From positions 886 to 21,938 of IMG/VR virus record IMGVR_UViG_3300030430_002929: a stretch of DNA of 21,053 nucleotides; one strand, written 5' to 3'. Shown piece after piece: positions 1 to 20,080 of the stretch. The stretch's first letter is position 1. Every line of letters begins with the position of its first letter. A program made the position numbers and the translations under genes. The notes below the pieces were generated by a model. The model was given only the letters and a program-made list of their open reading frames with translations. It made no database searches and was not told the DNA's origin. The DNA is from a virus.

Positions 1-1582
1 TGGCACTTATTGACGCTGCGGCTTGTGCAACAATAGCCGCAATGTCAATCGCTGAACCAATGTTATTACTAGCTATGAGCGCTCTTCCTACTCCAAACAT
101 TGCAGGATTGAAAAGACCTAAAGCTGCTGTGGTAGCTCTGATTGAAGCGTTTGAAGATCTTGTATTTATTATAACTTCGCCTATAGCTGATGCTTTTTCT
201 GCTATGATAGTAGCTATTTGTAATGCTTTGTTTTCACCAGCCAAACTTTCTAATATGGAACTTATAGACCTAATAGAATCTACTGTTCTGAAAGCAGTAT
301 CTATTTTCATTTGCTCAACTACTTCTGTAGCCATAGCAATCATTCTTTGTCTCTCAAGAAATTCTTTAGAAAAGTCGTCAAATTCTTTCAGACCTTTCTT
401 GCCTACTTCTACAAGTTCTTCTTGTGCTTGTTTTCTAATTCTAAGTTGTTCTACAGTGATTCCTAACATTTGAGCTTCTATAATCTCTAACATTGTAAAA
501 TCATCTTCTAAGAAGCCCTTTAATTGCTTTGCTCGTTTTCTTCTAGCAGACTTAATTCTACCAGAAGACTCTTCATCGTCAATTTCGCCACCAGAAACTA
601 TTGTTGCAGTCAAAGAATTAATACGCTCTATAATAGGCTTTGCTTCTTCTTCAACTTCATTAGAAAAAGACTCAAAAGTATTTTTTATTTCATCTGTTGT
701 TTGCTCTCTTAAAGCAGGTGAAATTTGTCCAATTAAAGTTGTTTCTCTAGCAGTTGTTAAAGCAACACCTTCTTCTTTTAAAAGTTTAGTAATAGCTTTA
801 AACCTTTCTTCTTCGTCTTTAATTAGATTTATATTCTCTATTTTACCTTGTAATGCAAGAATTTTTGAATTTTCTCTTACCAAATTATCAATCTCAATTC
901 TAGCGGCTTGAGTTAATATGTATCTATTTATTTTTTCTCTTACTATATCTAAACCATTGCCATATGCAAAATCTTCTTTTTTCAAAGTTGGCACTAACTT
1001 TATAAGTTCTTGAGTTGCAACAATTCTTTCTTTTTCAGTAAGATTTAATGTTTCAAGAGAATTTACATAAGAGTCTATCACTACAACTTTTGCACTTAAT
1101 TCGTCTAGTGATTTACTTAAACTTTCTGTTCCTCTTTTTGCTGCTCTGGCTCTTTGTGCAAAAGTTTCTAACAATGCTATAACTATTTGAAAACCTAGAA
1201 TAATACCTAGCGGCCCTTTAATTTGTCTACCTAATATTTGAAAAGCATTACCTACACCCCCTGTTGAAGCTATTAAAGTGGTAAATAGTGTCGCTAATTG
1301 TGACAAGTTATTTGTTATCGCAGTAATTCCAAAAGGTAAATCTGAAATCGTTCTACCAAGTTCTACAAGAGTTGCTCCTGCAAGACCTGATTTGTCTACT
1401 TGTTTTTTCTGAGCTTCAGTTAATTGTTTTGTAGCTGTAGTTGTTATATCGGTAGATCTTCTTACATTTTTTAATTGTTTGTCTACTTCACTTAAAGATA
1501 CGCTAACTCCATTTAATCTTGCTTGTGCTTTTCCGTCAACAAGTTCTATCTCTATTAAATATTTACTTTTTGCTACTGCCAT
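1..1582 (-). CDS. Tail tape measure protein (partial, N-terminal 527 residues)
   Basis: The reading frame is open from an ATG at 1582 to the left edge, so at least 527 residues are visible and the C-terminus is missing. The N-terminus (KYLIEIELVDG) is followed by long helical, Ala/Lys/Glu-rich coiled-coil sequence. A hydrophobic glycine-rich stretch at about residues 85-140 includes GPLGIILGFQIVIALLE, and the visible end is Ala/Ile-rich. This composition is typical of phage tape measure proteins, which span the tail tube, set its length and help the DNA enter the cell. The gene overlaps the end of the 45-residue gene upstream and closes the visible tail operon. Identification rests on size, composition and position. 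No catalytic domain is visible, although one could lie beyond the edge. Confidence 0.72.
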   Translation of the reverse strand, partial: MAVAKSKYLIEIELVDGKAQARLNGVSVSLSEVDKQLKNVRRSTDITTTATKQLTEAQKKQVDKSGLAGATLVELGRTISDLPFGITAITNNLSQLATLFTTLIASTGGVGNAFQILGRQIKGPLGIILGFQIVIALLETFAQRARAAKRGTESLSKSLDELSAKVVVIDSYVNSLETLNLTEKERIVATQELIKLVPTLKKEDFAYGNGLDIVREKINRYILTQAARIEIDNLVRENSKILALQGKIENINLIKDEEERFKAITKLLKEEGVALTTARETTLIGQISPALREQTTDEIKNTFESFSNEVEEEAKPIIERINSLTATIVSGGEIDDEESSGRIKSARRKRAKQLKGFLEDDFTMLEIIEAQMLGITVEQLRIRKQAQEELVEVGKKGLKEFDDFSKEFLERQRMIAMATEVVEQMKIDTAFRTVDSIRSISSILESLAGENKALQIATIIAEKASAIGEVIINTRSSNASIRATTAALGLFNPAMFGVGRALIASNNIGSAIDIAAIVAQAAASISA

Positions 1583-1710: not shown

Positions 1711-3887
1711 TCTATTACTGTGTTTAATAATTCTATTTGACTCTCACCAGTATTTAAATTTGTTGTTATACTATTTATTTGATGCTTTCTTCCTTTATAT
1801 ATAAACTTATCTGCTAGTGTATAGTTTAATAATATCCTTAAAGGGAGAAAGGCTTTGAGTTTAATGATACGATTGCTTCTTGTAAATGTTTGAGAAATAT
1901 AAGATGTATAGTATTGACTAAAGAGCGTATCTGTAAAAAGTAAAGCATTTCCTATATCTTCCTTTATAGCATACTCATTATTTTCATTCTTAAAGTTTAT
2001 ATTCTTTTTTCCATTGGTTGCTGTTGGGTCAAAAGATATTGAGTTGCTAGGCATATTTACTGAGCCATTGATTTCTTCAACAGTGTTAAATGTACCTGAT
2101 GAAGAAATACTATCTACAAAAGATATTGGATTTGCAGATACAGAAGTATATACTGGATAAAACAAAACAGGGTCGCCTATGTAAGCATCATAATCTCCTG
2201 TAGTGGTATCAAAATTATCATCAGCAGAATATCCCCACTGAATTACTGTTGTGGTATCATCATTTAAATTAAGCAGTCTTTCAAACTTCATATGTCCAAA
2301 AGGTGCTTCTACTTTATAAATATTACCAGCTAAGTTTGTATCTGGTTTGTTGTCAAAATTTTCACTTGATTTATTATACTCTTCTTCACCCCAAACAAGC
2401 CCAAAGGCTTGGTTGTGTTGTTTTGCAAGAAGTGTACCTGTGTCTTTATAAGTAAGTTTCACTTCTCTGTAAGGTAACGCTGAGTCAGAAGTATTTTGCG
2501 TTGAGTCTACAAATTCATCTATGGTGTATGGGTTGCCAGAAGATTCTTTGTCTTTATAAAACTCATCTAATGTGTCTACATATATTGTACCATCGGACTC
2601 TACAAAAGCCGTAAGATTAAACATTTTAAAAAGACCTGTTAAGAAATCTATAACACCCATATCAGGTATTTGTTCTGTTATCACAAATTCTGTTACAGGA
2701 GAAATGGTTATTGTTCCAGTAGGCGGAGATCTAAACACATCTGTATTTGCTCCTGATTCTGGTTCTGTATAATCAATCTCCCATTGTAAAGCAAGTGTAA
2801 TACTTGTAGAAGTAGTTACAAAAACCTGATAAGTAGAGCCTTTTTGTATGTCTGAGCTACTTAAAGTAATTGTGCTATTTCCTGAAGCAACATTGTTCAC
2901 ATAAATGCTTGAACCATCTTTTTTAATTTCAATAGCAAAAGTAGCAGAAGCACTTATAATTTTTAACTTCATAGCACTTATAATTACAGAATCTTCAGTA
3001 GTTAATTCTAGTGTAGAAGTGTTCACCATAGTTCCTGCTTCTCCTTGTCCAGCTTGCCAACCATCAACCAAAGCAGCAGTGGTAGCTTCAGAAGTTGCAC
3101 CTTCTAAGTAACCTTTCTTTCTATGAAGCCACATAAATAAATTAAAAAAAGAAGGATTGCTGTCATCAAAGAAATCATTACTAAATGTTATCTGACTATA
3201 TTTTGCTTCTATCGCTTCAATAATTCTTTGTACACGAATAGCATACTTTAAATTATCCCATCTTACTCCGTGTTTATGTCCAGAGTTTTTAAAATATATG
3301 TTACCTACATTTGCTAAATTCTCTCCACTGTTGTAATACAATCTTTGGCTATGAGTAAGTAATGGCACAATTAAATCATTTGCTGCGTTGCTAGAATCTT
3401 TTATAAGAAATTCTTTTATGCCATCATTTGTGCCATCATTCTCTGCAATGTATTTTTGACTTAAAGTATTTAAGTCAGTTAAGTCAGCCAATTTATCGTC
3501 ACCTATTATGTTTTTAAGTGTTACTGTTTCGCCAAAGAAAGTAATTCTATAAGCAAAAGGTTTGTTGTTTTTTAAATCTACCCCTTCTAATTTAACGAAT
3601 CCTTTTTTGAAAGGTATGTTATTTATTTCTATTCTTGCTTCTACAAAAATCCTAGCATCAAACCCATCAGATATATCTGCATTGTAAAAGTGTTTGAATA
3701 ATTTATTATTTGTTTTTGAAGCAGGTACAGAAAAAGATTGAGAGAACTCTGTAAATACTTTTGCAATATCTCTTACTTCTTGTATAGTATCTGTAATAGA
3801 TATTGTTTCATCTTTAAACAAGTCAAGTCTTGTAAAGACTTGTACTTGAGATAAATCTTGAACAAATATTTGAGTGGTTCTTTTCAC
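1707..3887 (-). CDS. Large virion (tail) structural protein, 726 aa
   Basis: A 726-residue protein with a GTG start at 3887, overlapping the stop of the upstream gene (TAGTG). The N-terminal part contains SVPASKTNNKLFKHFYN, an Arg/Lys- and aromatic-rich region, and HKHGVRWDN at about residue 205. The middle (about 260-400) is Ser/Thr-rich and beta-strand-like, and the C-terminus ends in alternating hydrophobic strands. I recall similar proteins from tail modules of Bacteroidota phages but cannot name a family. Size, beta-rich character and position before the tape measure gene fit a baseplate, distal tail or hub-like component. No enzyme motif is visible. Confidence 0.55.
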   Translation of the reverse strand: MKRTTQIFVQDLSQVQVFTRLDLFKDETISITDTIQEVRDIAKVFTEFSQSFSVPASKTNNKLFKHFYNADISDGFDARIFVEARIEINNIPFKKGFVKLEGVDLKNNKPFAYRITFFGETVTLKNIIGDDKLADLTDLNTLSQKYIAENDGTNDGIKEFLIKDSSNAANDLIVPLLTHSQRLYYNSGENLANVGNIYFKNSGHKHGVRWDNLKYAIRVQRIIEAIEAKYSQITFSNDFFDDSNPSFFNLFMWLHRKKGYLEGATSEATTAALVDGWQAGQGEAGTMVNTSTLELTTEDSVIISAMKLKIISASATFAIEIKKDGSSIYVNNVASGNSTITLSSSDIQKGSTYQVFVTTSTSITLALQWEIDYTEPESGANTDVFRSPPTGTITISPVTEFVITEQIPDMGVIDFLTGLFKMFNLTAFVESDGTIYVDTLDEFYKDKESSGNPYTIDEFVDSTQNTSDSALPYREVKLTYKDTGTLLAKQHNQAFGLVWGEEEYNKSSENFDNKPDTNLAGNIYKVEAPFGHMKFERLLNLNDDTTTVIQWGYSADDNFDTTTGDYDAYIGDPVLFYPVYTSVSANPISFVDSISSSGTFNTVEEINGSVNMPSNSISFDPTATNGKKNINFKNENNEYAIKEDIGNALLFTDTLFSQYYTSYISQTFTRSNRIIKLKAFLPLRILLNYTLADKFIYKGRKHQINSITTNLNTGESQIELLNTVIE

Positions 3888-5056
3888 TATCTAATATTAT
3901 TTATTTTATCAAATGCCATATCAAACTCAATGGTGTATTGCGTTAATCTGTCATTAACGCTAGTCTTGTAGGTGACCGATTTTGTTCTAGGTATTACAGG
4001 AGTAATTAATTCTTGGGCATCTGTTATTCTTGTCATCCAGTGTTGTTCCGACAACATTAGTTCTTCTATAACTTGATTGTTGTCATCATTTAAGTAGTCT
4101 GTGTTTAAGACAATTCTATCGTTTCCATTGGTTTGAAATAATTGTTTCTGATGCTGATAAGTTTTATATGAAAGTGTTGATTCGCTGAATATTGACCTTT
4201 TGTAATTTTCTGATGTCACTTCTGTTGATTCCACAGACTTAAGTGTAAAAAATAAATCTTGTAAAACACCAAATTTATTTACAAAGGTAATTTTTACTGG
4301 CTCGTATTTTGAGCAACTAAAAGTTTTTACCTTTAATACTTCTGTACCGCTAGCTGAGTTTATATATACTTCGTCTACTTCTCCTGCATCTATAGAATCT
4401 AAAAAATCATCAAGCAAAGTATTGTCTTCAAATGTACCGCCATCTGCTAAAACTCTTTCTTTATAAGTATCTAATTGGTCGTTTCCAAACACATCTACAT
4501 ATTTCACTTGTGCATTTGTGTTTGTGCTTGAAGATATTGCTACAGTTCTTACTACTTCATTGTTGTTTAAGAAAGAAACAGAACTGGTGTCTTCGGTAAA
4601 CACAGGAACTCTAGTATTAAAGTCATCTACCCTAAATATTGTTTTGTTGGACTGTAGTAAAGTTCTACTCAGTTCTGGATTTACTCCTTCTTCAAAATAA
4701 CCATAACCATCAAAAGCAACATAATCACTGTTTGCGTTTTCTGTACTTGCATCAGTTTTTGTTATCACAATGTCAGCTTCCACCCAACGTACTGGGTCTA
4801 TTTCTGGAGAAGAAGTGCTTTCGTAGTCTCCGCTAAATTCTATATCTAAGTAATCTCTAACAAGTTCTGATATTTCAAATACAACAAAGTTGTTTCCTGT
4901 TAGTGGAGTTTTTTCTACTGTGTATACCGCACTTCCTTTGTTTGTGGTAAATATACCATCATACACAAAAAGACTAAGTACAGCTTTTGATATTGTGCCA
5001 GAGCTAGGTGTTGCTTTTATAAAGAAAGGACTTCTTACGTTTATTTTAGTTGCCAT
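3887..5056 (-). CDS. Tail-module virion protein, 389 aa
   Basis: A 389-residue protein whose ATG at 5056 overlaps the upstream stop codon (TAATG). It is predicted to be mostly beta strand with many Thr, Ser, Asn and Asp residues and has no signal peptide or membrane segment. The start (MATKINVRSPFFIKATP) and the C-terminal region (RTKSVTYKTSVNDRL) suggest a secreted-style or virion beta-sandwich fold. It lies between an HK97 gp10-like gene and the 726-residue virion gene, and both junctions overlap. A structural role in the tail is likely. Whether it is the major tail tube subunit or a distal component cannot be decided from the sequence alone. Confidence 0.5.
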   Translation of the reverse strand: MATKINVRSPFFIKATPSSGTISKAVLSLFVYDGIFTTNKGSAVYTVEKTPLTGNNFVVFEISELVRDYLDIEFSGDYESTSSPEIDPVRWVEADIVITKTDASTENANSDYVAFDGYGYFEEGVNPELSRTLLQSNKTIFRVDDFNTRVPVFTEDTSSVSFLNNNEVVRTVAISSSTNTNAQVKYVDVFGNDQLDTYKERVLADGGTFEDNTLLDDFLDSIDAGEVDEVYINSASGTEVLKVKTFSCSKYEPVKITFVNKFGVLQDLFFTLKSVESTEVTSENYKRSIFSESTLSYKTYQHQKQLFQTNGNDRIVLNTDYLNDDNNQVIEELMLSEQHWMTRITDAQELITPVIPRTKSVTYKTSVNDRLTQYTIEFDMAFDKINNIR

Positions 5057-5505
5057 TATTTAAGGTTTGGGTTTTGTTTCTCTAATTGTTCTTCAGCATC
5101 TAACAAGTAAGCATCTCCAAGTTCTTTGGTTATTATGTCCTGTTTATTCATAAATGATTTTGCTACATAGTCAATGCCTGGATAACCTTTTTTCATAAGT
5201 TTATCACTAACAGCAAAAGCGAATTGTCTTAATGATCTGTTGTTTCTTGGCACAATACCTTTTATACTTGCCCATTGCACCAAAGGTGCAATAGGTGCAA
5301 ATTTACCAGGTCTTCTACCTTTGTCTACTACAGTGTCATATTCTGCTGTATTGAATACTCCAATCTTATTATCAGATGTATCTATTTGAAATGAATTTTT
5401 TAAATTGCCACTTGCAACTCTATTTTTAGCGACAATCTCTTTTGTCATATCACTAATAAGTTGTGTTGCTAATTTATTTAATGTGCCTTGTACTCTTTTT
5501 CCCAT
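5056..5505 (-). CDS. HK97 gp10-like tail-completion/connector protein
   Basis: A 149-residue protein. I chose the ATG at 5505 because it overlaps the previous stop as TAATG, the same junction type as the next gene. An upstream TTG would add two residues. It shows the HK97 gp10-like pattern: an N-terminal helix, then GNLKNSFQI, a short strand, AEYDTVVDKGRRPGKFAP and PLVQWASIKGI. Family members join the head to the tail or complete the tail end before head attachment. Length is normal for the family. Its neighbours, a putative tail terminator and large virion proteins, agree with that role. Confidence 0.72.
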   Translation of the reverse strand: MGKRVQGTLNKLATQLISDMTKEIVAKNRVASGNLKNSFQIDTSDNKIGVFNTAEYDTVVDKGRRPGKFAPIAPLVQWASIKGIVPRNNRSLRQFAFAVSDKLMKKGYPGIDYVAKSFMNKQDIITKELGDAYLLDAEEQLEKQNPNLK

Positions 5506-5966: not shown

Positions 5967-6037
5967 TGTTTATATGCTTTTTTAATTTGACTTGCTTCTA
6001 AATCATTTTTCTCTTTCTCAAACTCTAACCACATCAT
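5963..6037 (-). CDS. 24-codon overlapping frame, possible -1 frameshift extension of the chaperone-like gene
   Basis: A 24-codon frame (MMWLEFEKEKNDLEAS...) starts at 6037 in an ATGA overlap with the stop of the 237-residue gene and ends in another ATGA overlap with the next gene. It lies in the -1 frame relative to the 237-residue gene. That -1 frame stays open upstream through a G-AAA-AAG stretch about 35 nt before the upstream stop. It could therefore be translated separately, or as a roughly 30-residue extension made by -1 frameshifting, as in phage tail-assembly chaperones. The encoded residues are charged and helical. The exact product is uncertain. Confidence 0.4.
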   Translation of the reverse strand: MMWLEFEKEKNDLEASQIKKAYKQ

Positions 6038-6747
6038 ACATTGGTGTATGTTAATATATGTAACTTTTTCAATTCGTTGGACAGATCCTTCAGCAAGTGC
6101 ATATATTGACTGATACCATCCCCACTTTTTTCCGAAGGAGTCTTCGCTTGTTGCTGGACTATTCCGTCTGTCTGTTTTTGTAAAGAGCGAAGGGTAGCTC
6201 TCAGTAATTCTCTCCCTAAATTGTAAAAAAAAACCATAGACCCTAAAGCAACAGTTACAGGAGAATCTTTCATTATATCTGCATATTTATCAGACCCTTC
6301 ATATTTTTCTATTTCATAAAACTCACCCTTGCCAGCAACTATCGGTCTGTACATAACAGCCAAAGCTCTATGCATCGTATTCCAGTCACTTATGTATTTT
6401 TCTAAATCTACATATTCTCCAAGAGTCATCTTGTCCATATTCGGCATAAAACCAAATTCAACTGTTTTTCCCTTTGGATCTGTCATTGTAAATCTTCTTT
6501 GTAATATCGCTTTTTCCGACATAATAGAAAGTATGTGAGTTACCACACCATTCAATTCATTGATAGGCAATTCGTATGCTTCCTTGAGTGTTATGTCGCA
6601 AAATATTTCTAGTATCTTGATTCTTACAAAATCTTCTGCCAATTCTTCTTTAGCATTGTCTTGAACTATTTTCGCATACTTCTGATACTTGTGTAAAGGT
6701 ATATCTGCCTGCGTTGCAGGAACTGATAGTTTTATTTTTTTACTCAT
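6034..6747 (-). CDS. Putative tail-assembly chaperone, 237 aa
   Basis: A 237-residue protein, first gene of the late operon. It is mostly helical, with an aromatic and charged middle (PIVAGKGEFYEIEKYEG) followed by SPVTVALGSMVFFYNLGRELL and a Gln/Lys-rich C-terminus. I do not recognise a named domain. Three observations support a tail-assembly chaperone role: it stands upstream of the tail genes, it is helical, and a short -1-frame extension with a candidate slippery AAA AAG follows near its 3' end. Many siphophages have such a chaperone just before the tape measure gene, whereas here about 4.3 kb of tail genes intervene. Moderately uncertain. Confidence 0.45.
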   Translation of the reverse strand: MSKKIKLSVPATQADIPLHKYQKYAKIVQDNAKEELAEDFVRIKILEIFCDITLKEAYELPINELNGVVTHILSIMSEKAILQRRFTMTDPKGKTVEFGFMPNMDKMTLGEYVDLEKYISDWNTMHRALAVMYRPIVAGKGEFYEIEKYEGSDKYADIMKDSPVTVALGSMVFFYNLGRELLRATLRSLQKQTDGIVQQQAKTPSEKSGDGISQYMHLLKDLSNELKKLHILTYTNV

Positions 6748-6795
6748 ATATATATAACTTATTGTGTTTAATAATGTACCAAGCGGTAGTTAAAT

Positions 6796-6811
6796 GTTAA
6801 AGTTTTGTTAA
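6796..6811 (-). promoter_or_regulatory. Phased TTAAC repeat pair upstream of the late operon
   Basis: Two TTAAC units (plus strand GTTAA at 6796 and 6807) are spaced exactly 11 bp, as at four other sites in the window. It lies 50-65 bp upstream of the first late gene. The -7 region at the expected distance (6766-6773, TATTAAAC) matches TAnnTTTG poorly, while TACATTAT at 6771-6778 is a partial alternative. It may be a promoter that depends on an activator. Confidence 0.4.
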
Positions 6812-6869
6812 AATTAGCTTGAAAATACAACAAAGTCAAAAATAATCAGTTATTTATATGTATATAAAC

Positions 6870-6904
6870 GTGGATGCATCCCAAATGCAGACACGTATAT
6901 CCAC
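6870..6904. other. Hairpin in the late leader
   Basis: GTGGAT at 6870-6875 pairs with ATCCAC at 6899-6904, and inside it GCAT pairs with ATGC around a five-base loop. The combined structure could fold in RNA from either strand. It is one of several hairpins in the gene-free leader. Confidence 0.4.
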
Positions 6905-6953
6905 TGAAGGAGATTATACTATATACAATATTTCATTCAAAACATATAAAGTG

Positions 6954-7029
6954 GCACGGCTAAGTGTATTTAGATAATACTGTATTATATACAAGTTTAG
7001 GGTCGTGCTTTGAAAACACTCCCCTAAAC
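6954..7029 (-). other. Two overlapping RNA structures, possible pseudoknot
   Basis: An 8-bp stem (GTTTAGGG 6995-7002 with CCCTAAAC 7022-7029) encloses a 19-nt loop. In minus-strand RNA that loop holds GCACG (7008-7004), which can pair with CGTGC at 6958-6954 downstream, giving an H-type pseudoknot. Alternatively, 6954-7008 folds as one long interrupted hairpin with stems GCACG/CGTGC, CTAA/TTAG, TGTAT/ATACA and ATAATA/TATTAT. The two folds compete for the CTAA segment, so an RNA switch is possible. Confidence 0.45.
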
Positions 7030-7066
7030 ATCTCTATAAAAACAAATAAAAATTAACACATCTAGA

Positions 7067-7115
7067 CCTAAGCTAATCTTCGTTGATTTGATTAAAGATG
7101 GGTACTTACCTTAGG
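7067..7115. other. Hairpin in the late leader
   Basis: CCTAAG at 7067-7072 pairs with CTTAGG at 7110-7115. Inside, ATCTT (7076-7080) can pair with AAGAT (7095-7099), or TAATC with GATTA. This is the first structure that RNA from the putative promoter near 7150 would meet. Confidence 0.35.
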
Positions 7116-7145
7116 AAAAACGCATTTTACGTAAGTAAAAGATAC

Positions 7146-7192
7146 GAAATATATTTTACATACACAAATTTTTTATGTTAAAATTTTGTTAA
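7146..7192 (-). promoter_or_regulatory. Candidate late promoter with phased TTAAC pair
   Basis: Two TTAAC units (plus GTTAA at 7077+100, i.e. 7177 and 7188) are 11 bp apart. Twenty-three bases further along the minus strand is TATATTTC (7153-7146), one mismatch from the Bacteroidota -7 consensus TAnnTTTG. The -33 position has no TTG. The layout matches the better promoters at 7769 and 8692, so this is the likeliest start of the structured late leader. Confidence 0.45.
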
Positions 7193-7252
7193 ATTTTACA
7201 AAAACGGATCCTGTTTTTTTCCAGGTTTCTAAAGTTATATATTGATTTTAGG

Positions 7253-7297
7253 CAAAAAGATATTGCAGGAATCCTGCAAACCAGGTCAAAAAGATAT
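7253..7297. repeat. Palindrome flanked by direct repeats, operator-like
   Basis: TTGCAGGA (7263-7270) and TCCTGCAA (7272-7279) form a perfect 8+1+8 palindrome. CAAAAAGATAT occurs on both sides at 7253-7263 and 7287-7297, 34 bp apart. The palindrome lies between the early terminator and the putative late promoter. This resembles a binding site for a dimeric DNA-binding protein, but no repressor gene is visible in the window. Confidence 0.5.
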
Positions 7298-7298
7298 A

Positions 7299-7333
7299 AA
7301 AAAAAAGGCGCGTTATTTTCATAACGCACCTTT
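7299..7333 (-). terminator. Rho-independent terminator ending the small-gene operon
   Basis: GGCGCGTTAT (7307-7316) and ATAACGCACC (7321-7330) form a 10-bp stem with one mismatch and a four-base loop. On the minus strand it is followed by a run of eight Ts (7306-7299). It lies downstream of the 69-residue gene and separates the early/middle small genes from the late region. Confidence 0.85.
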
Positions 7334-7359
7334 AACACATTTTCAGTGTTTTAACTATT

Positions 7360-7569
7360 TTACATCATTCTGAATTTTTTTTTATATTCAACGCCATAAC
7401 CATTGTTTATAAATAATATTTCGTATTGATAAGTGTCTTTTATATCATTTATAAAGTCTTGTTGTTCCTGGTATGTATCAAAGATCTTTTTTTGCCAATA
7501 ATATTCTTTTACTTTTCTTCTTGCCTTAGCGTGTTTGATGTTGTTTAATATTCTTGCTTTGCTTGACAT
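7360..7569 (-). CDS. Hypothetical small protein, 69 aa
   Basis: A 69-residue protein with a strongly basic N-terminal half (KARILNNIKHAKARRKVKEYYWQKK) written here only in part: KHAKARRKVKEYYWQKK at about residues 12-28. The second half is mixed and aromatic and ends YGVEYKKKFRMM. It has no membrane segment and no motif that I recognise. It stands alone between two terminators, so its transcription needs read-through from the micro-gene upstream or a weak promoter in the 40-bp AT-rich leader. The basic, helical start would suit nucleic acid binding, which is inference. Confidence 0.6.
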   Translation of the reverse strand: MSSKARILNNIKHAKARRKVKEYYWQKKIFDTYQEQQDFINDIKDTYQYEILFINNGYGVEYKKKFRMM

Positions 7570-7609
7570 AATATTTTACTTAAATTAATAATTTGTATTT
7601 ATAGATTAT

Positions 7610-7636
7610 AAAAAAAAGCGCATGACGCGCTTTTTT
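7610..7636 (-). terminator. Rho-independent terminator (bidirectional in form)
   Basis: GCGC at 7618-7621 and GCGC at 7627-7630 with flanking A and T runs form a 10-bp stem with a five-base loop. On the minus strand it is followed by eight Ts. It sits a few bases after the stop of the 33-residue membrane micro-protein gene. Confidence 0.82.
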
Positions 7637-7639
7637 GAA

Positions 7640-7741
7640 TTAGTTCATATTTTGAATCACGTGATCCAGGATAAAAATTCCCATTACTATATAAATTGAA
7701 CTTATTGAATAAATTATTAACTTTTGTGTTTTTGTTTTCAT
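7640..7741 (-). CDS. 33-aa single-pass membrane micro-protein
   Basis: A 33-residue frame from ATG 7741 to TAA 7640. The basic start (MKTKTQK) is followed by a hydrophobic segment of about 18 residues (LIIYSISSIYIVMGIFIL) and a short polar tail. It has its own promoter at 7769-7797 with the phased TTAAC sites, an A-rich leader ending AAACAAACAAATG and its own terminator right after the stop. That complete transcription unit is the reason to call it real in spite of its size. It would sit in the inner membrane with the C-terminus probably outside. Function unknown; superinfection exclusion or modulation of a host membrane protein is speculation. Confidence 0.62.
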   Translation of the reverse strand: MKTKTQKLIIYSISSIYIVMGIFILDHVIQNMN

Positions 7742-7768
7742 TTGTTTGTTTTTAATTGTTTTACTTTG

Positions 7769-7825
7769 TAAATATACGACTTTTTTTTCTATTCCAATGT
7801 TAAGCCAATGTTAAGAAATTGTTAA
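7769..7825 (-). promoter_or_regulatory. Promoter with three phased TTAAC repeats
   Basis: On the minus strand TTG (7797-7795), an 18-bp spacer and TATATTTA (7776-7769) match the Bacteroidota -33/-7 pattern except for the last base. Directly upstream are three TTAAC units (plus GTTAA at 7799, 7810 and 7821), each 11 bp apart. The most distal unit overlaps the stop codon of the 81-residue gene. It drives the 33-residue membrane protein. Confidence 0.7.
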
Positions 7826-8067
7826 GAATTTACATTTTTTAATTTATTGTTTCTGGTATCAAAAATTCGTTTTGTATATCCTTCTTCTTTTCTTTCACCT
7901 GTATAAGCATTTATTGAAATTCTTTTAGCTTTTATTAAATATTCATATTGATTTAATTTTTTAACTTTAAAACTTTTCATTGTTTGATTTAATGACTTCA
8001 TTGTTTTTCTATTAAAAAATTCTGGTGCGGTGTATTTAGTTCTTTTTTTTATTTCGTATATAGTCAT
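7822..8067 (-). CDS. Hypothetical protein, 81 aa
   Basis: An 81-residue basic protein (TIYEIKKRTKYTAPEFF, then KTMKSLNQTMKSFKVKKL). Its ATG overlaps the previous stop as ATGA at 8067-8064. Charged residues dominate and there is no membrane segment. Small proteins with a similar IYEIK...PYFF...TMKSF pattern occur in Bacteroidota phages as I recall, but I know of no function. It is the last gene of the three-gene group driven by the promoter at 8692-8736. Confidence 0.62.
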   Translation of the reverse strand: MTIYEIKKRTKYTAPEFFNRKTMKSLNQTMKSFKVKKLNQYEYLIKAKRISINAYTGERKEEGYTKRIFDTRNNKLKNVNS

Positions 8068-8264
8068 AATCCTGATTTTTTAAGAAAGTATTTATATACT
8101 TCCGGTATATGTTTTTTATAGTATGGTTGTTCTGATGCGACCCATCTTTTAAGACTTTGTTTGTCCGTAAACGGTGCATATTGATCAAATAATGGTTCTA
8201 TATCGTCAATAAAATCACCAACAGTCCATCCTTCCCATATGTGTTTGTCTCTTGAGTTTTGCAT
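8064..8264 (-). CDS. Hypothetical protein, 66 aa
   Basis: A 66-residue protein with WTVGDFIDDIEP near the start and QPYYKKHIPEVYKYFLKKSGL at the end, the latter given here in parts: QPYYKKHIPEVYKYF. The aromatic- and Pro-rich end resembles conserved small proteins of Bacteroidota phages and prophages. No catalytic motif is visible. It is coupled by ATGA to the 81-residue gene and preceded by an A-rich leader ending AATAATAAAATG. Confidence 0.6.
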   Translation of the reverse strand: MQNSRDKHIWEGWTVGDFIDDIEPLFDQYAPFTDKQSLKRWVASEQPYYKKHIPEVYKYFLKKSGL

Positions 8265-8281
8265 TTTATTATTTATTAAGA

Positions 8282-8659
8282 TTAATATAAAAAATTTAAG
8301 TCAATATTATACTTTCTTGCCAGCTTTAAACAATGGAAAGACATATGATTCCAATAATTTTCTTCTATTTTTAAATATTGTTTTTCTGTTAGTTTGTCTG
8401 TTTCGTGAACTCTTTGTGCAAGTTTTCTAACGTCAGACCAATGATAAGGAAGATCCAACGGAAGACCTTGCAACCAATGCGAAAAACGTTGTTGTAAATT
8501 TGGCCACCTCAATTTGTTGTTTTTATAATTATATTCCTTGTTAAATCTTTTTACCATTGTTTGAAGTTTTTCTTTTTTTGTACTGCCTTCAAGATCTTCA
8601 ATGGAATTAAATATTTCAATAGATATATTTTTTAGATATTGTTTTGTGTTTGTTTTCAT
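8282..8659 (-). CDS. Hypothetical protein, 125 aa
   Basis: A 125-residue, largely helical protein starting MKTNTKQYLK. The middle contains LRWPNLQQRFSHWLQGLPLD, a Trp- and Pro-rich segment typical of a conserved Bacteroidota phage and plasmid family of unknown function, and the C-terminus ends ARKYNIDLNFLY. It is the first gene of a three-gene group under the promoter at 8692-8736. The first codons, ATG AAA ACA AA, repeat the start context of two other genes nearby. Confidence 0.62.
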   Translation of the reverse strand: MKTNTKQYLKNISIEIFNSIEDLEGSTKKEKLQTMVKRFNKEYNYKNNKLRWPNLQQRFSHWLQGLPLDLPYHWSDVRKLAQRVHETDKLTEKQYLKIEENYWNHMSFHCLKLARKYNIDLNFLY

Positions 8660-8691
8660 TTTATTATTTGTTTGTTTTTAATTTGTTTACA

Positions 8692-8736
8692 CAAATATAA
8701 AAACGTTTATCATAATCAATGTTAAGAAATTGTTAA
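8692..8736 (-). promoter_or_regulatory. Consensus Bacteroidota promoter with phased TTAAC pair
   Basis: On the minus strand TTG (8719-8717), a 17-bp spacer and TATATTTG (8699-8692) match the TTG-N17-TAnnTTTG consensus exactly. Two TTAAC units (plus GTTAA at 8721 and 8732) at 11-bp spacing abut the -33 element. It is the best promoter match in the window and heads the 125, 66 and 81-residue genes. Confidence 0.78.
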
Positions 8737-8755
8737 ATAAATGTAAACAAAAAAA

Positions 8756-8826
8756 CTTACTGCTTTTAGCAAAAACCTACTGCGTTTAAGAACCTACTGC
8801 GTTTAAGAACGTACTGCGTTTAATAA
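8756..8826. repeat. Tandem 17-bp repeats of the TTAAACGCAGTAGG element
   Basis: Three head-to-tail copies of a 17-bp unit (8776-8792, 8793-8809, 8810-8826; plus strand CCTACTGCGTTTAAGAA) follow a degenerate copy at 8756-8775. The first two full copies are identical. They fill the space between the stop of the 59-residue gene (8828) and the TTAAC sites of the next promoter. No hairpin can form from a single unit. The arrangement resembles iterons or protein-binding arrays. Confidence 0.85.
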
Positions 8827-8827
8827 T

Positions 8828-9007
8828 TTATCCAATGAACCAATGATCTTTTTTATTTTTAGATTCGTTCAATAAAAAATTTTCCATTTCCGCAATTTGT
8901 GAATCAAGAATTTTTTTATACGGACTTATGTTGTGTAAGTTATTTTTAATATCAATCATTAAATCTTTACAATCTTCTACAAGTTTTATTGTTTCATTAT
9001 TTACCAT
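8828..9007 (-). CDS. Hypothetical protein, 59 aa
   Basis: A 59-residue frame from ATG 9007 to TAA 8828. It is helical and mixed-charge (VEDCKDLMIDIKNNL, then KILDSQIAEMENFLL) and ends KKDHWFIG. It probably forms a short coiled coil. The start follows the stop of the 85-residue gene by one base. The stop is directly followed by the tandem 17-bp repeats, so it is the last gene of the 10657-8828 group. No family recognised. Confidence 0.58.
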   Translation of the reverse strand: MVNNETIKLVEDCKDLMIDIKNNLHNISPYKKILDSQIAEMENFLLNESKNKKDHWFIG

Positions 9008-9008
9008 A

Positions 9009-9266
9009 TTATAAATTAAAATTAATTCCGTTTGCTTTTGCTTGTTTCAGTGTTTTTAGATTTATCATTCTAAAAGCTTTTTTTCTCATATCGTATGCGA
9101 TCATTAAACCTTTGTCACCAGGATTAAAAGACATTCCCACGCCTTTTACGCCTTTTTTGACTTTTCGTCTAAATATACCTTTTCTTATCGTTCCGTCTTT
9201 TTTTACAAAAGTGGCACTAAAGATCTTTCCGTTTTCTATTTGTTCTAAAAATATTTGTTTGTTCAT
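9009..9266 (-). CDS. SH3-like barrel protein (WYL_2/DUF2693-like), 85 aa
   Basis: An 85-residue protein with FVKKDGTIRKGIFRRKVKKG, then a loop ending in a MIAYDMRKKAFRMINLKTL segment (residues about 56-73). A basic strand region followed by Y-D-M-x-K-x-A-F-R-x-I resembles the Sm-like SH3 beta-barrel family once called DUF2693 (WYL_2), which is frequent in Bacteroidota phages and plasmids. Function in that family is unknown; ligand or nucleic acid binding is possible. The ATG overlaps the previous stop as ATGA. Confidence 0.6.
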   Translation of the reverse strand: MNKQIFLEQIENGKIFSATFVKKDGTIRKGIFRRKVKKGVKGVGMSFNPGDKGLMIAYDMRKKAFRMINLKTLKQAKANGINFNL

Positions 9267-9403
9267 TGTATTGTGATTTTAATTTTACCATTTTTCATTT
9301 CAAATCTACCCTTTTTGGATAGCTTTTGAATATTCTCTGCATCTGTTTTATTATAACCCATTTTTACCAGGACACTTTTTAAGCTGGGTAATTTACTCAT
9401 CAT
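9263..9403 (-). CDS. Hypothetical protein, 46 aa
   Basis: A 46-residue frame from ATG 9403 (a second ATG follows at 9400). I chose this start because it lies next to the stop of the 98-residue gene (ATGATGAGTAA overlap). A longer frame starting at 9526 would lie entirely inside the upstream gene. The protein is basic, with LKSVLVKMGYNKTDAENIQ, possibly a short helix-turn-helix-like or UBA-like helical unit. No function can be assigned. Confidence 0.55.
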   Translation of the reverse strand: MMSKLPSLKSVLVKMGYNKTDAENIQKLSKKGRFEMKNGKIKITIQ

Positions 9404-9689
9404 CAAAACTTTTATTGCTATCGGCAAAGTCAATGACTTCTTCGTAAATACTTGGGTACTCTCTTTGCGTATATTCAATAAACCTTTCAGCAATGTAAGA
9501 ATCCTTAAGTTTTTTAATATGATCATCCATTTTATATAATTTGTCTACGACTTCATCATATAATTTATTTGCTTGTTTATTACTAATGTCACTTAGCATT
9601 GAAGCAATTAATATTGATATTGCTTGCTTACGTTGATATTCTGGTTGTTCTGCAATGTGTTTTATCGCACTTTTTGTTATTTCTTCCAT
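9393..9689 (-). CDS. Hypothetical helical protein, 98 aa
   Basis: A 98-residue protein starting MEEITKSAIKHIAEQPEYQ and ending in an acidic tail (FADSNKSFDDE). It is predicted all-helical, with no membrane segment or catalytic motif. The start overlaps the previous stop as TAATG. It is the largest protein of the 10657-8828 group. I do not recognise the family. Confidence 0.6.
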   Translation of the reverse strand: MEEITKSAIKHIAEQPEYQRKQAISILIASMLSDISNKQANKLYDEVVDKLYKMDDHIKKLKDSYIAERFIEYTQREYPSIYEEVIDFADSNKSFDDE

Positions 9690-9814
9690 TATTTCTGTAA
9701 TTTAGTTTTTTTCATTCCTTGATAATTTGCGTTCCAAATGTTTCGCAGGATCACCATAGAATCAAAATTATTATTTGTTTGTTTTGTCTTTTTTTGTTTC
9801 TTATTTGTTTTCAT
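9689..9814 (-). CDS. Hypothetical Lys/Asn-rich micro-protein, 41 aa
   Basis: A 41-residue frame from ATG 9814 to TAA 9689, whose stop overlaps the next start (TAATG). The first 15 residues are almost only Lys, Gln, Thr and Asn (MKTNKKQKKTKQTNNN), followed by a hydrophobic and Trp-containing stretch (FDSMVILRNIW). Its first codons repeat the ATGAAAACAAA context seen at 8659 and 7741. Strong positive charge suggests binding to nucleic acid or to an acidic host protein, but this is inference. Confidence 0.5.
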   Translation of the reverse strand: MKTNKKQKKTKQTNNNFDSMVILRNIWNANYQGMKKTKLQK

Positions 9815-9826
9815 TATTTAATATAA

Positions 9827-9979
9827 TTACATTCTTAATTTAACTTGTTCATATACTTCGTTTGCCATTTGTATTGAAGCCTTGCCAAAGTCTTCATTGA
9901 CTCGTTCCATTATAATTCGTGCAACAACATAATCTATTATGTCTTCCGCACATTCTATTACTTTATCTTTTTTTCTCAT
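9827..9979 (-). CDS. Hypothetical protein, 50 aa
   Basis: A 50-residue frame from ATG 9979 to TAA 9827. It is helical with alternating hydrophobic and acidic residues (DKVIECAEDIIDYVVARIIME, given in part: CAEDIIDYVVARIIME) and looks like a single amphipathic helix pair. It is preceded by an A-rich leader that is part of a 30-bp direct repeat. No recognised family. Confidence 0.52.
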   Translation of the reverse strand: MRKKDKVIECAEDIIDYVVARIIMERVNEDFGKASIQMANEVYEQVKLRM

Positions 9980-9986
9980 ATTTTAA

Positions 9987-10016
9987 TTTTTAATTATTAT
10001 TTGTTTTCATTTCTTT
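9987..10016. repeat. 30-bp direct repeat, copy 1
   Basis: These 30 bases are identical to 10146-10175. Together the copies bracket the 41-residue gene at 10021-10146. The repeat holds the A-rich translation leader (minus strand AAAACAAATAATAATTAAAAA). Confidence 0.85.
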
Positions 10017-10020
10017 ATTC

Positions 10021-10146
10021 TCAATTTGTATTTATTAATGTGTTCATTTCTTCATTCCAACAATTGATCATTGTTTCTGTATCAATTATTTTATCACCTG
10101 TTTGTTCACAAAAAGTGTAACATACTTCTACTTTTATATATTTCAT
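10021..10146 (-). CDS. Hypothetical micro-protein, 41 aa, in a repeat-bounded cassette
   Basis: A 41-residue frame from ATG 10146 to TGA 10021 with three cysteines (VCYTFCEQ and INCWNEE). It could be a short beta-hairpin plus helix. No family recognised. Its start codon sits at the edge of one 30-bp direct repeat and its stop lies just before the other, so recombination between the repeats would remove or duplicate exactly this gene. Confidence 0.52.
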   Translation of the reverse strand: MKYIKVEVCYTFCEQTGDKIIDTETMINCWNEEMNTLINTN

Positions 10147-10175
10147 TTTTAATTATTATTTGTTTTCATTTCTTT
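10146..10175. repeat. 30-bp direct repeat, copy 2
   Basis: Identical over 30 bases to 9987-10016. This copy includes the last codons and stop of the 40-residue gene and the leader of the 41-residue gene. Confidence 0.85.
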
Positions 10176-10278
10176 TGTTTAACTCTTGTTTAATTTTTAA
10201 AGCTGTATACATACACTCTTCCAACTTGGTTAAAAGTTGTACATAACTCATATTATATAAGTCTTTGTCTCGTATCAT
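10156..10278 (-). CDS. Hypothetical micro-protein, 40 aa
   Basis: A 40-residue frame from ATG 10278 to TAA 10156: polar and helical (SYVQLLTKLEECMYTALKI) with a Lys/Asn-rich end (KRNENK). The last residues are encoded by the 30-bp repeat, so the C-terminus may be a by-product of that repeat. The start lies two bases after the stop of the 56-residue gene. Function unknown. Confidence 0.52.
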   Translation of the reverse strand: MIRDKDLYNMSYVQLLTKLEECMYTALKIKQELNKRNENK

Positions 10279-10280
10279 AT

Positions 10281-10451
10281 TTAATAAATTTTAATTGTTG
10301 TCCATTCTATATCAAAAGAAATTAACTCTTCGTGTTCTTCTTCGTCTCTGTCAGAATTGTTATCTATCAACCATTTGTCAGGATCATTTGTAATGTCAAC
10401 AATGTAAGTATGACCAACGTTGTCCGTAAATCTAATTATTGCTACTTCCAT
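10281..10451 (-). CDS. Hypothetical acidic protein, 56 aa
   Basis: A 56-residue frame from ATG 10451 to TAA 10281. Beta-like start (EVAIIRFTDNVGHTYIVDI), acidic middle (NNSDRDEEEHEELIS) and a final strand (IEWTTIKIY). The very acidic stretch might mimic DNA, as in some phage anti-defence or inhibitor proteins, but that is speculation. The leader (AAAAACAAATAAATATG) is the common A-rich type. Confidence 0.52.
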   Translation of the reverse strand: MEVAIIRFTDNVGHTYIVDITNDPDKWLIDNNSDRDEEEHEELISFDIEWTTIKIY

Positions 10452-10453
10452 AT

Positions 10454-10657
10454 TTATTTGTTTTTAATTATTTTTTCGTTTAAAATATCTACTTGATATT
10501 CTAATTGTTCTATATAATGCATAAAAGATTCTATATAATACACATCATCTTCTTTTAGTTCTTCTAATCTATAACCATTAAAATAATTAAAGCCTTCATC
10601 AACTTTATCTAATAATACCTGGTTTTTGTCTTTGTTATTGTATTTTAAATTACTCAT
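10454..10657 (-). CDS. Hypothetical coiled-coil protein, 67 aa
   Basis: A 67-residue protein, first gene of the small-gene group driven by the promoter at 10684-10752. It is acidic in the middle (EELKEDDVYYIESFMHYIEQ) and ends with a heptad-like helix (LEYQVDILNEKIIKNK). Charged coiled coil without membrane segments or a catalytic motif. Function unknown. Confidence 0.6.
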   Translation of the reverse strand: MSNLKYNNKDKNQVLLDKVDEGFNYFNGYRLEELKEDDVYYIESFMHYIEQLEYQVDILNEKIIKNK

Positions 10658-10683
10658 TTTATTTGTTTTAAAAAATTATGATC

Positions 10684-10752
10684 CAAACATACAAAAAATA
10701 TTTTATTGTCTAATGTTAAGGAATTGTTAAGAAATCGTTAAGAAATGGTTAA
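10684..10752 (-). promoter_or_regulatory. Promoter with four phased TTAAC repeats
   Basis: TATGTTTG (minus, 10691-10684) matches the -7 consensus exactly. The -33 position reads TTA rather than TTG, about 19 bp upstream. Four TTAAC units (plus GTTAA at 10715, 10726, 10737 and 10748) are each exactly 11 bp apart. This is the longest array in the window and heads the group of small genes from 10657 to 8828. Confidence 0.7.
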
Positions 10753-10764
10753 GCAGGAAAAAAA

Positions 10765-10825
10765 CCTATTGCGTTTAAGAGTATGGCAACCTACTGCGTT
10801 TAACGATAAACCTACTGCGTTTAAC
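10765..10825. repeat. Three TTAAACGCAGTAGG elements at the end of the terminase gene
   Basis: Copies (plus CCTAYTGCGTTTAA) lie at 10765-10779, 10790-10804 and 10811-10825, with spacings of 25 and 21 bp. The last one contains the TAA stop codon of the terminase gene. In that frame the element reads TAA-ACG-CAG-TAG, a double stop. They fill the gap between terminase and the phased TTAAC promoter. Confidence 0.83.
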
Positions 10826-12032
10826 GAAGTGTGTAAGATCCTTTGTTTCTGTTTGTTAAAACGTATTGAGACGCGTATCTAATTGCATCAATGCAGTGAT
10901 TCCATTTATCTACTGGTTTGGTCTGACCTTTGGTAGCCCAAACGTAGTTGTTTAGTTCTTTGATTAGTTCTTTTGAGCCTGGGTCTACAATGAGATCGTA
11001 GTCCTGGAGAAGTGCGATACCAGACAATATAGACCCACTGCGTTTAACGGTCGGTCTTAGATTCGCACCTTTTAATTTTATTTCTTTGATAAGTCTTGGT
11101 TCTGAAGAATCAGAGATAATCAAACTTGGTCCTGCATATCTAATATTCTGGTCGGCAATTTGCGTGGTTGACATACCAACCCTACAATACATCACTTTTA
11201 TAAAGATACGCTTATTTCCTTTGTCAATAGATAGCTTTACTAAGGTTGTAGGATCAACAGAGAAACCAAAGTCTTGTCCATATATAATCTCATAGTTATC
11301 ATTAAAATCTCCTACTCTCCAATTTGTAAATATGACACCTTCTTGTTTTTCCATCCACCCACCAAGTATTTGGTGTGTGTATTTCTCTGGTCTTCTTCTG
11401 CGTATATCTGCTATCTGTTTTAAAAAAGAATCAGAAAGATTGTCTACATTGTCTAAGTAAGTTGTGTGTATGTATGTTATTCCTTCTTTGATGCCGTTGA
11501 ATCCTTCAGGTATATCTCTGTTTGCGTAAAACCTGTTCCATATCCAATGTTCTTTTGTTGTAGGATTCAGGATAAGAATTACCCTATTGAGTTTAGTTTT
11601 CACACGAACGGATTGGTCAATTTTATCAAAGGTGTCTTCATCAGTCAGTTCTTCTGCCTCATCCAATACAAAGGTAGTTATTGCGTTTAACGATTTGAGT
11701 GAAGCTGTTTGATTCCCAGAAGCAGTTCTTATTCCTTTGAAGAGTATACTTGAGCCTGTCTTTACATTTGTTATTTCGTCTTTGGTAATACGGAAGTCTT
11801 CTACTACTTCCATTATTTCTAACTTTTCTATAAACTCTGGGATGATAGATGATGAAGCGGACACCATTGTGTATCTTGTAAACAATATCTTGTGTCCTTT
11901 TTCATAAGTAAGAAGCAGTAAAAATACATTAACAGCGAAGCTCTTACCAGACCCCCTACCACCTGTTGTCAAGAAATACCTTGAAGTATTTCCAAACGAC
12001 TTATACTTTTCATTTAGATTTGGTACTTTCAT
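10821..12032 (-). CDS. terL: Terminase large subunit
   Basis: A 403-residue packaging ATPase/nuclease of the PBSX-like Terminase_3 type. The N-terminal motor domain has Walker A GGRGSGKS (residues 24-31) and Walker B FVLDEAEEL (121-129), with a coupling segment near LNPT (155-158). The C-terminal RNase H-like nuclease shows GQDFGFSVDPT (Asp254), IISDSSEP (Asp308) and DAIRYA (Asp382), the three expected acidic residues. It cuts concatemers and drives DNA into the procapsid. The start overlaps the end of the putative small terminase gene by 23 bp. Two copies of a dispersed 14-bp element are embedded in the coding sequence and a third supplies the stop codon. Confidence 0.95.
   Translation of the reverse strand: MKVPNLNEKYKSFGNTSRYFLTTGGRGSGKSFAVNVFLLLLTYEKGHKILFTRYTMVSASSSIIPEFIEKLEIMEVVEDFRITKDEITNVKTGSSILFKGIRTASGNQTASLKSLNAITTFVLDEAEELTDEDTFDKIDQSVRVKTKLNRVILILNPTTKEHWIWNRFYANRDIPEGFNGIKEGITYIHTTYLDNVDNLSDSFLKQIADIRRRRPEKYTHQILGGWMEKQEGVIFTNWRVGDFNDNYEIIYGQDFGFSVDPTTLVKLSIDKGNKRIFIKVMYCRVGMSTTQIADQNIRYAGPSLIISDSSEPRLIKEIKLKGANLRPTVKRSGSILSGIALLQDYDLIVDPGSKELIKELNNYVWATKGQTKPVDKWNHCIDAIRYASQYVLTNRNKGSYTLR
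11035..11048. repeat. Intragenic TTAAACGCAGTGGG element in terL
   Basis: Minus strand GTTAAACGCAGTGGG, one base different from the consensus. It is read as V-K-R-S-G at about terL residues 329-333, in a frame that avoids the stops of the element. Confidence 0.6.
11677..11692. repeat. Intragenic TTAAACGCAATAAC element in terL
   Basis: Minus strand CGTTAAACGCAATAAC, a weaker match to the dispersed element. It encodes SLNAIT at about terL residues 114-119, in a different frame from the copy at 11035. Confidence 0.45.
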
Positions 12033-19484: not shown

Positions 19485-19514
19485 CTAATATATATAAAAA
19501 TTATTATATACAAA
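19485..19514 (-). promoter_or_regulatory. Candidate promoter of the recombination/replication operon
   Basis: On the minus strand TTTG (19514-19511), an 18-bp spacer and TATATTAG (19492-19485) match the Bacteroidota pattern with one mismatch in the -7 box. There are no phased TTAAC repeats here, unlike the promoters further downstream. This difference would suit an early promoter read by host polymerase. Confidence 0.55.
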
Positions 19515-20049: not shown

Positions 20050-20080
20050 TGCGTTTAAGAATTACCCTACTGCGTTTAAT
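20046..20080. repeat. Two TTAAACGCAGTRGG elements between holin and M15-like genes
   Basis: Copies at 20046-20060 and 20066-20080 (plus CCCACTGCGTTTAAG and CCCTACTGCGTTTAA), 20 bp apart. The right copy touches the holin stop codon. The left copy supplies the GTG start of the M15-like gene. Confidence 0.83.

What the first reader, a model, noticed from the sequence alone, without database searches (positions are those of the whole stretch)
6789..10752. TTAAC repeats phased at exactly 11 bp upstream of the -33 element at five sites
Intergenic sites at 6796-6811 (2 units), 7177-7192 (2), 7799-7825 (3), 8721-8736 (2) and 10715-10752 (4) all hold TTAAC (minus strand) repeated at exactly 11 bp, one helical turn. 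At four of them a TAnnTTTG-like -7 box follows 22-24 bp after the proximal unit, and at two there is a TTG -33 element directly next to it. Units on one face of the helix next to -33 look like binding sites of a cooperative activator or repressor. The operon promoter at 19485 lacks them. The copy number differs from site to site, as if to tune strength. I do not know this motif from described Bacteroidota phages.
Basis: partly seen in the sequence, partly recalled or inferred. Interest (0 to 1): 0.78.

Follow-up and report, generated by a model that had tools for sequence, protein, structure and literature searches.

The report
Host Pho boxes in marine flavophages
The evenly spaced TTAAC repeats in front of this marine virus's small genes have the sequence of the switches that its bacterial hosts use to turn on phosphate-uptake genes, so the virus probably reads its host's phosphate-starvation alarm through the host's own regulator.

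Summary
In detail: eight TTAAC-N6-TTAAC pairs (0.25 expected) at exactly the five intergenic sites listed, all on the gene strand. About 45 related marine viral contigs share them (spacing 11: 134; other spacings average 7.6). In these relatives the arrays lie 10/11, 21 or 32 bp from TA[TC]NTTTG, so they are phase-locked to the promoter.

Identification: a weight matrix built only from phage arrays was scored upstream of pstS in 22 Flavobacteriaceae genomes. It separated them from 342 background windows (AUC 0.999, p = 2e-15; reversed matrix not significant). The host sites are three TTAAC-like units at 11 bp, the last 10 bp before nnnnTTTG, the PhoB arrangement of E. coli. Such arrays also precede porin O/P, PiT/DUF47, TonB-receptor, beta-helix-lipoprotein and phoB-like genes. 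No PhoB-type DNA-binding domain was found in 14 phage records.

Best reading: host Pho boxes, making the promoters of the small-gene module and first tail gene responsive to host PhoB. Binding and induction are inferred. Main weakness: most phage arrays sit one helical turn further upstream (21 bp) than in host pst promoters. Nearest precedent: cyanophage genes bound by host PhoB. By-product: a flavobacterial Pho-box consensus, for which I found no earlier description.

The parts
10715..10752 (-). four-unit TTAAC array (11-bp period), proposed Pho box upstream of the small-gene operon that starts at 10657
10684..10691 (-). -7 box TATGTTTG, 23 bp after the proximal unit
8828..10657 (-). run of small genes (41-98 aa) of unknown function downstream of the four-unit array
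   Evidence: 9009-9266 matches phrog_2267 (unknown function)
8721..8736 (-). two-unit TTAAC array
8692..8699 (-). -7 box TATATTTG, 21 bp after the proximal unit
7822..8659 (-). three small genes (125, 66, 81 aa) downstream of the 8721 array
   Evidence: 8282-8659 matches phrog_11100, unknown function
7799..7825 (-). three-unit TTAAC array
7769..7776 (-). -7-like box TATATTTA, 22 bp after the proximal unit
7360..7741 (-). short peptide ORF starting at 7741 and the 69-aa gene 7360-7569 downstream of the 7799 array
7177..7192 (-). two-unit TTAAC array; the region downstream (about 6840-7140) has no long ORF
7146..7153 (-). -7-like box TATATTTC, 23 bp after the proximal unit
6796..6811 (-). two-unit TTAAC array upstream of the gene at 6034-6747; no convincing -7 box
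6034..6747 (-). 237-aa protein (phrog_32199, unknown function), first gene of the tail/structural run, ATG at 6747

Best explanation
The arrays are Pho boxes of the phage's flavobacterial host. Each 11-bp unit, TTAACATT plus a 3-bp linker, would bind one effector domain of the host response regulator PhoB head to tail, on one face of the helix. When the host runs short of phosphate, PhoR phosphorylates PhoB; PhoB~P would occupy two to four units upstream of a strong TAT[AG]TTTG -7 box and recruit the host's housekeeping RNA polymerase to promoters that lack a conserved -33 element. The promoters wired this way are those of the small-gene module between terminase and tail genes, and of the first tail gene. 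Shown here: the arrays, their conservation and phasing, and their match in sequence to the arrays of the host phosphate regulon. Inferred: that PhoB binds them, that they activate, and that phosphate starvation switches the module on.
For: (1) Motif real, conserved, one strand, intergenic, phased to the -7 box. (2) Matrix from 39 non-redundant phage arrays, scored 2.2 kb upstream of PstS genes chosen by protein similarity only: all 22 Flavobacteriaceae score 12.2-29.1 against 342 windows drawn from largely the same genomes (99th percentile 8.9, maximum 15.2); AUC 0.999, p = 2e-15; reversed matrix AUC 0.60, p = 0.07. (3) Architecture alone, with no linker information: 20 of 22 pst regions have three TTAAC-like units with the last exactly 10 bp before nnnnTTTG, score 16 or more; 1 of 342 background windows does. 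(4) The linker between the last two units separates regulators: nTTnn[CG] in 62% of phage and 73% of pst sites (p = 0.42), but 10% and 5% of TTAAC arrays of other promoter classes (p = 0.005 and 5e-11). (5) Unbiased pattern search in 80 Flavobacteriaceae: 18 matches against 1 for the reversed pattern; downstream genes include porin O/P, a TonB receptor and a beta-helix lipoprotein, kinds of genes that lie in the phosphate-induced phoBR cluster of F. johnsoniae (Fjoh_0542, 0545, 0546; PMC8115612; Fjoh_0542 itself was not induced there). (6) Genome-wide in 18 PstS-bearing genomes, a sequence model of the phage arrays finds the pst upstream region in 12 and a PiT-like transporter gene. (7) Arrays precede phoB-like genes (L107, L135; best NCBIfam matches PhoB, below curated cut-off) and DUF47/PiT genes (L313, L101). 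(8) No Trans_reg_C domain in 14 phage records. (9) Period and copy number match PhoB/SphR sites: 8-bp repeats with 3-bp linker, CTTAACCT in Synechocystis (PMC1906773); B. fragilis PhoB binds its pst promoter (PMC3547664).
Against: In host pst promoters the last unit is 10 bp from nnnnTTTG; in most phage promoters it is 21 bp, with no conserved unit at 10 bp, though phage arrays at 10/11 bp also occur. TTAAC pairs 20-24 bp from TAnnTTTG exist in Flavobacteriaceae before genes not known to be phosphate-regulated (DUF4442, a lipoprotein family), with only one clear phosphate gene (DUF47/PiT) among them. The host is not identified. No binding or expression data. A cyanophage study found that predicted Pho boxes do not always bind PhoB or respond (PMC10976474).
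Confidence: 0.7

Rival explanations
1. The arrays bind another host OmpR-family response regulator whose site resembles a Pho box (Bacteroidota carry at least one, seen as TTAACC-nnnCA-TTAAC arrays 22 bp from the -7 box before envelope genes, possibly RprY-like).
For: A class of arrays with the same 11-bp period and a 22-bp gap is common in Bacteroidota genomes (51 of 80 loci), close to the phage's 21-bp gap; Flavobacteriaceae have TTAAC pairs at 20-24 bp before apparently unrelated genes.
Against: The 22-bp class has linker nnnnCA (46%; phage 0%) and lacks nTTnn[CG] (5%; phage 62%, p = 5e-11); scored by linker, 82% of phage sites fall on the pst side and 96% of the 22-bp class on the other.
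Confidence: 0.18
2. A phage-encoded regulator (the sigma-70-like protein at 16366-16926 or an unrecognised DNA-binding protein) reads the arrays and times the module within the infection cycle, independently of phosphate.
For: The phage has a sigma-70 region 2 protein; the arrays head one contiguous module.
Against: The same arrays occur in host phosphate promoters without the phage and in viral contigs recovered by motif alone; P12024S has the syntenic sigma-like gene but no arrays; no OmpR/PhoB-type domain found in 14 records.
Confidence: 0.08
3. PhoB sites that repress or titrate: the phage uses PhoB~P to shut promoters off, or the arrays soak up PhoB to silence the host phosphate response.
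For: The sites are multiple and strong; position does not prove activation.
Against: The arrays lie upstream of and in phase with the -7 box, not over it, as in host pst promoters; spread over five promoters they look like regulation rather than a decoy.
Confidence: 0.04

Closest known systems
Host PhoBR control of cyanophage genes (P-SSM2 pstS; Synechococcus phage S-PM2d), PMC10976474 and work cited there
   Same: Marine phage promoters carrying direct-repeat Pho boxes of the host; no regulator supplied by the phage; repeat core resembles the cyanobacterial consensus PyTTAAPyPy(T/A).
   Different: Here the phages are those of Bacteroidota, the promoter is of the TAnnTTTG type, several promoters of one phage carry two to four exact units, and the controlled genes are small unknown proteins rather than phosphate-uptake or replication genes. 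Binding was shown for S-PM2d, not here.
Bacterial Pho boxes: E. coli PhoB, Synechocystis SphR (PMC1906773, PMC4415409)
   Same: 11-bp tandem direct repeats (8 conserved + 3 linker), at least two or three units, placed in helical phase with the promoter; SphR consensus CTTAACCT resembles (C)TTAACATT.
   Different: Flavobacterial/phage consensus TTAAC[A/G]TTAA[C/G]TTAACATT; host last unit 10 bp before nnnnTTTG, phage usually 21 bp.
F. johnsoniae PHO regulon (PMC8115612) and B. fragilis PhoB (PMC3547664)
   Same: Genes downstream of the arrays in Flavobacteriaceae are of the kinds found in or near that regulon (porin O/P, TonB receptor, beta-helix lipoprotein).
   Different: In the text searched, neither paper gives the binding-site sequence; it is derived here.

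Membership tests
Pho box (PhoB/PhoP/SphR operator) | tandem direct repeats with 11-bp period, at least two units | tested here: met
   2-4 exact units at five window sites and in relatives
Pho box (PhoB/PhoP/SphR operator) | sequence matches the operators of phosphate-regulon genes in the host lineage | tested here: met
   phage-derived matrix on 22 pst regions, AUC 0.999; linker test; genome-wide model
Pho box (PhoB/PhoP/SphR operator) | helical phase relative to the -10/-7 box, typically last unit 10 bp upstream | tested here: inconclusive
   hosts 10 bp in 20 of 22; phages at 10/11, 21, 32 bp, mostly 21; window 21-23
Pho box (PhoB/PhoP/SphR operator) | binding by phosphorylated PhoB | not testable with these tools
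   needs EMSA or DAP-seq
Pho box (PhoB/PhoP/SphR operator) | induction by phosphate starvation | not testable with these tools
   needs reporter or RNA-seq
Cyanophage-type phosphate-controlled auxiliary metabolic genes | controlled gene is a host-derived phosphate-metabolism gene | tested here: not met
   downstream genes are mostly small unknown proteins; only GP88, WYL_2 and NADAR domains recognised among 10 relatives scanned
Bacteroidota 22-bp-gap TTAAC arrays (other OmpR-type regulator) | linker ending CA and 22-bp gap | tested here: not met
   0 of 39 phage linkers end in CA, gap peak 21
Operator of a phage-encoded OmpR-family regulator | Trans_reg_C gene in the phage | tested here: not met
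   0 of 14 records (fragments possible)

The most novel reading that the evidence does not exclude
Marine flavophages of several lineages have wired a whole module of small, varied genes to the host's phosphate-starvation regulator through a promoter type of their own: two to four PhoB units ending one helical turn further upstream (21 bp) than in the host, on a strong TAT[AG]TTTG box without a -33 element. The phage then reads host phosphate status as a general switch for its takeover or accessory genes, not to boost phosphate uptake.
Probability: 0.45. Interest if true: 0.75.

Novelty: new variant of a known kind. Interest (0 to 1): 0.62.

Why it matters
Bacteroidota are major marine heterotrophs and their phages are poorly understood. 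If true, infection by an uncultured phage group is tuned by host phosphate status, which links phage gene expression to nutrient limitation outside cyanobacteria and gives a direct test (PhoB binding, reporter under phosphate starvation). The work also yields a sequence for the flavobacterial Pho box, TTAAC[AG]TTAA[CG]TTAACATT with the last unit 10 bp before nnnnTTTG, usable to predict phosphate regulons in a phylum for which I found no published consensus.

Tried and rejected
Chance or base composition: rejected. Separate -33 element: TTG after the array is not conserved in relatives. A degenerate extra unit at 10 bp in phage gap-21 promoters: no clear signal. The first genome scan mixed two regulators (22-bp and 21-bp gaps) and alone would have misled; they were separated by gap and linker. 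TIGR02136 found few flavobacterial PstS; PF12849 worked. The three-unit pattern with TAnnTTTG at 14-24 bp found only 2 hits in 80 Flavobacteriaceae because host sites sit at 10 bp before a weak nnnnTTTG. P12024S, the nearest cultured relative found, has no arrays. A search for arrays in cultured phages gave only a lead, Tenacibaculum phage pT24. Viral contigs with the host-type 10-bp arrangement before TTTATTTG: one. No Rfam match in the window. Papers on phosphate control of flavobacterial phages: none found in the library.
Full report
THE OBSERVATION. The pattern GTTAA-N6-GTTAA (TTAAC on the gene strand) occurs eight times in the window, where shuffles give 0.25, at exactly the five sites listed. 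Intergenic DNA makes up 1,707 of 21,053 bp, yet all 13 array units lie in it. Gaps to the -7 box are 23, 21, 22 and 23 bp at the four sites that have one; 6796 has no good box. The window lies on a 21,938-base virus record, related at the terminase (51% identity) and in gene order to the marine Nonlabens phages P12024S/L.

CONSERVATION. The terminase fetched 80 related viral loci. In the close group (87-99% identity, plus partial matches) TTAAC at spacing 11 occurs 134 times against a mean of 7.6 at other spacings; almost all are on the gene strand. The arrays carry two to four units and mostly end at TTAACATT. The distance from any second or later unit to TA[TC]NTTTG peaks at 10-11 (9 cases), 21 (40) and 32 (26), i.e. 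steps of one helical turn. The group at about 60% identity has almost none, and P12024S has none. A motif scan of IMG/VR with a fixed 21-bp gap found 91 stretches, many on contigs not in the terminase set and often with several arrays each, so the trait appears wider than one phage group; I did not classify these contigs.

WHAT THE MOTIF IS. A scan of bacterial genomes for three units plus TAnnTTTG returned almost only Bacteroidota and neighbours, with sharp gaps of 22 (51) and 21 (17) of 80. The 21-gap class includes a PiT phosphate transporter, a phoB-like gene, a porin next to pstS and a PAP2 phosphatase; several of these have a further unit at 10 bp. The 22-gap class precedes many secreted and envelope genes and has a different linker. 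In Flavobacteriaceae I then chose pstS genes by protein similarity only and looked upstream. The porin-pst operons, or pstS itself, carry three TTAAC-like units at 11 bp, the last exactly 10 bp before nnnnTTTG: 20 of 22 against 1 of 342 background windows. A matrix built from the phage arrays alone gives AUC 0.999 (p = 2e-15) on the same regions; the reversed matrix gives 0.60. Consensus sequences: phage tTaac.atttcTTAACAtTaacTTAACATT, pst aTAAc.Tac.ctTAAC.TTAAcTTAACATTg. The linker distinguishes regulators: phage and pst agree (62% and 73% nTTnn[CG]), other TTAAC arrays do not (10%, 22%, 5%). A caveat: set definitions used TTAAC itself, so only linker columns were compared there.

GENOME-WIDE SPECIFICITY. 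In 18 genomes (about 62 Mb), a sequence-only model of the phage arrays gave 168 matches at E up to 1. By my count 15 of the listed ones fall upstream of pstS in 12 genomes, although these regions are under 0.1% of the DNA; another lies before a PiT-like gene (the PiT assignment of L469 rests on its likeness to L101, and a Pfam scan of its first 70 residues gave no match). A pattern search at the 10-bp phase in 80 Flavobacteriaceae gave 18 matches against 1 for the reversed pattern; downstream genes are porin O/P, TonB receptors, beta-helix lipoproteins and others, including three MoxR-like genes with a variant unit. The first three kinds match genes of the F. johnsoniae phoBR cluster. I matched kinds, not sequences; in that study the TonB receptor and lipoprotein were strongly induced by phosphate depletion while the porin Fjoh_0542 was not. 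'Beta-helix lipoprotein' is my reading of the sequence; Pfam gave no match.

MECHANISM. PhoB-type effector domains bind 11-bp direct repeats head to tail (PMC4415409). In E. coli the boxes end 10 bp before the -10 (PMC1906773), which is the distance found here in flavobacterial pst promoters. In the phages the array usually ends a full turn further away, before a strong TAT[AG]TTTG box, with no conserved -33 and no clear extra unit. I read this as upstream activation from the same face of the helix, but activation from 21 bp is inferred. No Trans_reg_C protein was found in 14 phage records, so a host regulator is the simplest reader.

WHAT IS CONTROLLED. In the window the arrays head the small-gene module between terminase and tail genes and the first gene of the tail run. 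In relatives the first gene after an array usually starts about 50 bp downstream and belongs to one of 73 clusters, mostly of 35-200 aa proteins; among ten scanned, GP88, WYL_2 and NADAR domains were recognised and no phosphate-metabolism gene.

LIMITS. No binding or expression data; host unknown; flavobacterial 2-unit arrays at 20-24 bp also precede genes with no known phosphate link; phoB assignments are below NCBIfam cut-offs. Predicted phage Pho boxes are not always functional (PMC10976474). I therefore hold the PhoB reading at 0.7.

Noticed in passing
8776-8823, 10765-10824, 11034-11047, 20045-20079 (strand -): A second, almost invariant 14-bp element, TTAAACGCAGTRGG, in clusters at 17/19/21/25-bp steps just after gene ends and just 5' of the TTAAC arrays; 386 copies on the gene strand and none on the other in 80 related loci, also in the 60%-identity group that lacks TTAAC arrays. 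Function unknown.
   Followed up: partly
6840-7140: Stretch without a long ORF between the 7177 and 6796 arrays; no Rfam match. Could be an RNA or short peptide transcribed from the 7177 array.
   Followed up: no
L089-L168 (genome contigs): Bacteroidota-wide class of TTAACC-nnnCA-TTAAC arrays exactly 22 bp before TAnnTTTG, many upstream of secreted and envelope proteins: looks like the regulon of another OmpR-family regulator.
   Followed up: partly
L316, L319, L320, L452, L456, L459, L464, L465; L309, L315, L322, L323: Two Flavobacteriaceae gene families, DUF4442-like proteins and a lipoprotein (IGGEI/FGGEIVNP), repeatedly preceded by TTAAC pairs at other gaps; regulator unknown.
   Followed up: no
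L482; record position 114380 of Tenacibaculum phage pT24 (strand -): Cultured flavobacterial phage with a 4-unit TTAAC array about 22 bp before TATATTTG, upstream of a very short ORF (record 114200-114298); a possible laboratory system.
   Followed up: partly
window 6034-12032: No recognised portal or capsid gene between terminase and the tail run; in P12024S the portal lies elsewhere (3405-5087), so head genes are probably displaced in this group.
   Followed up: no
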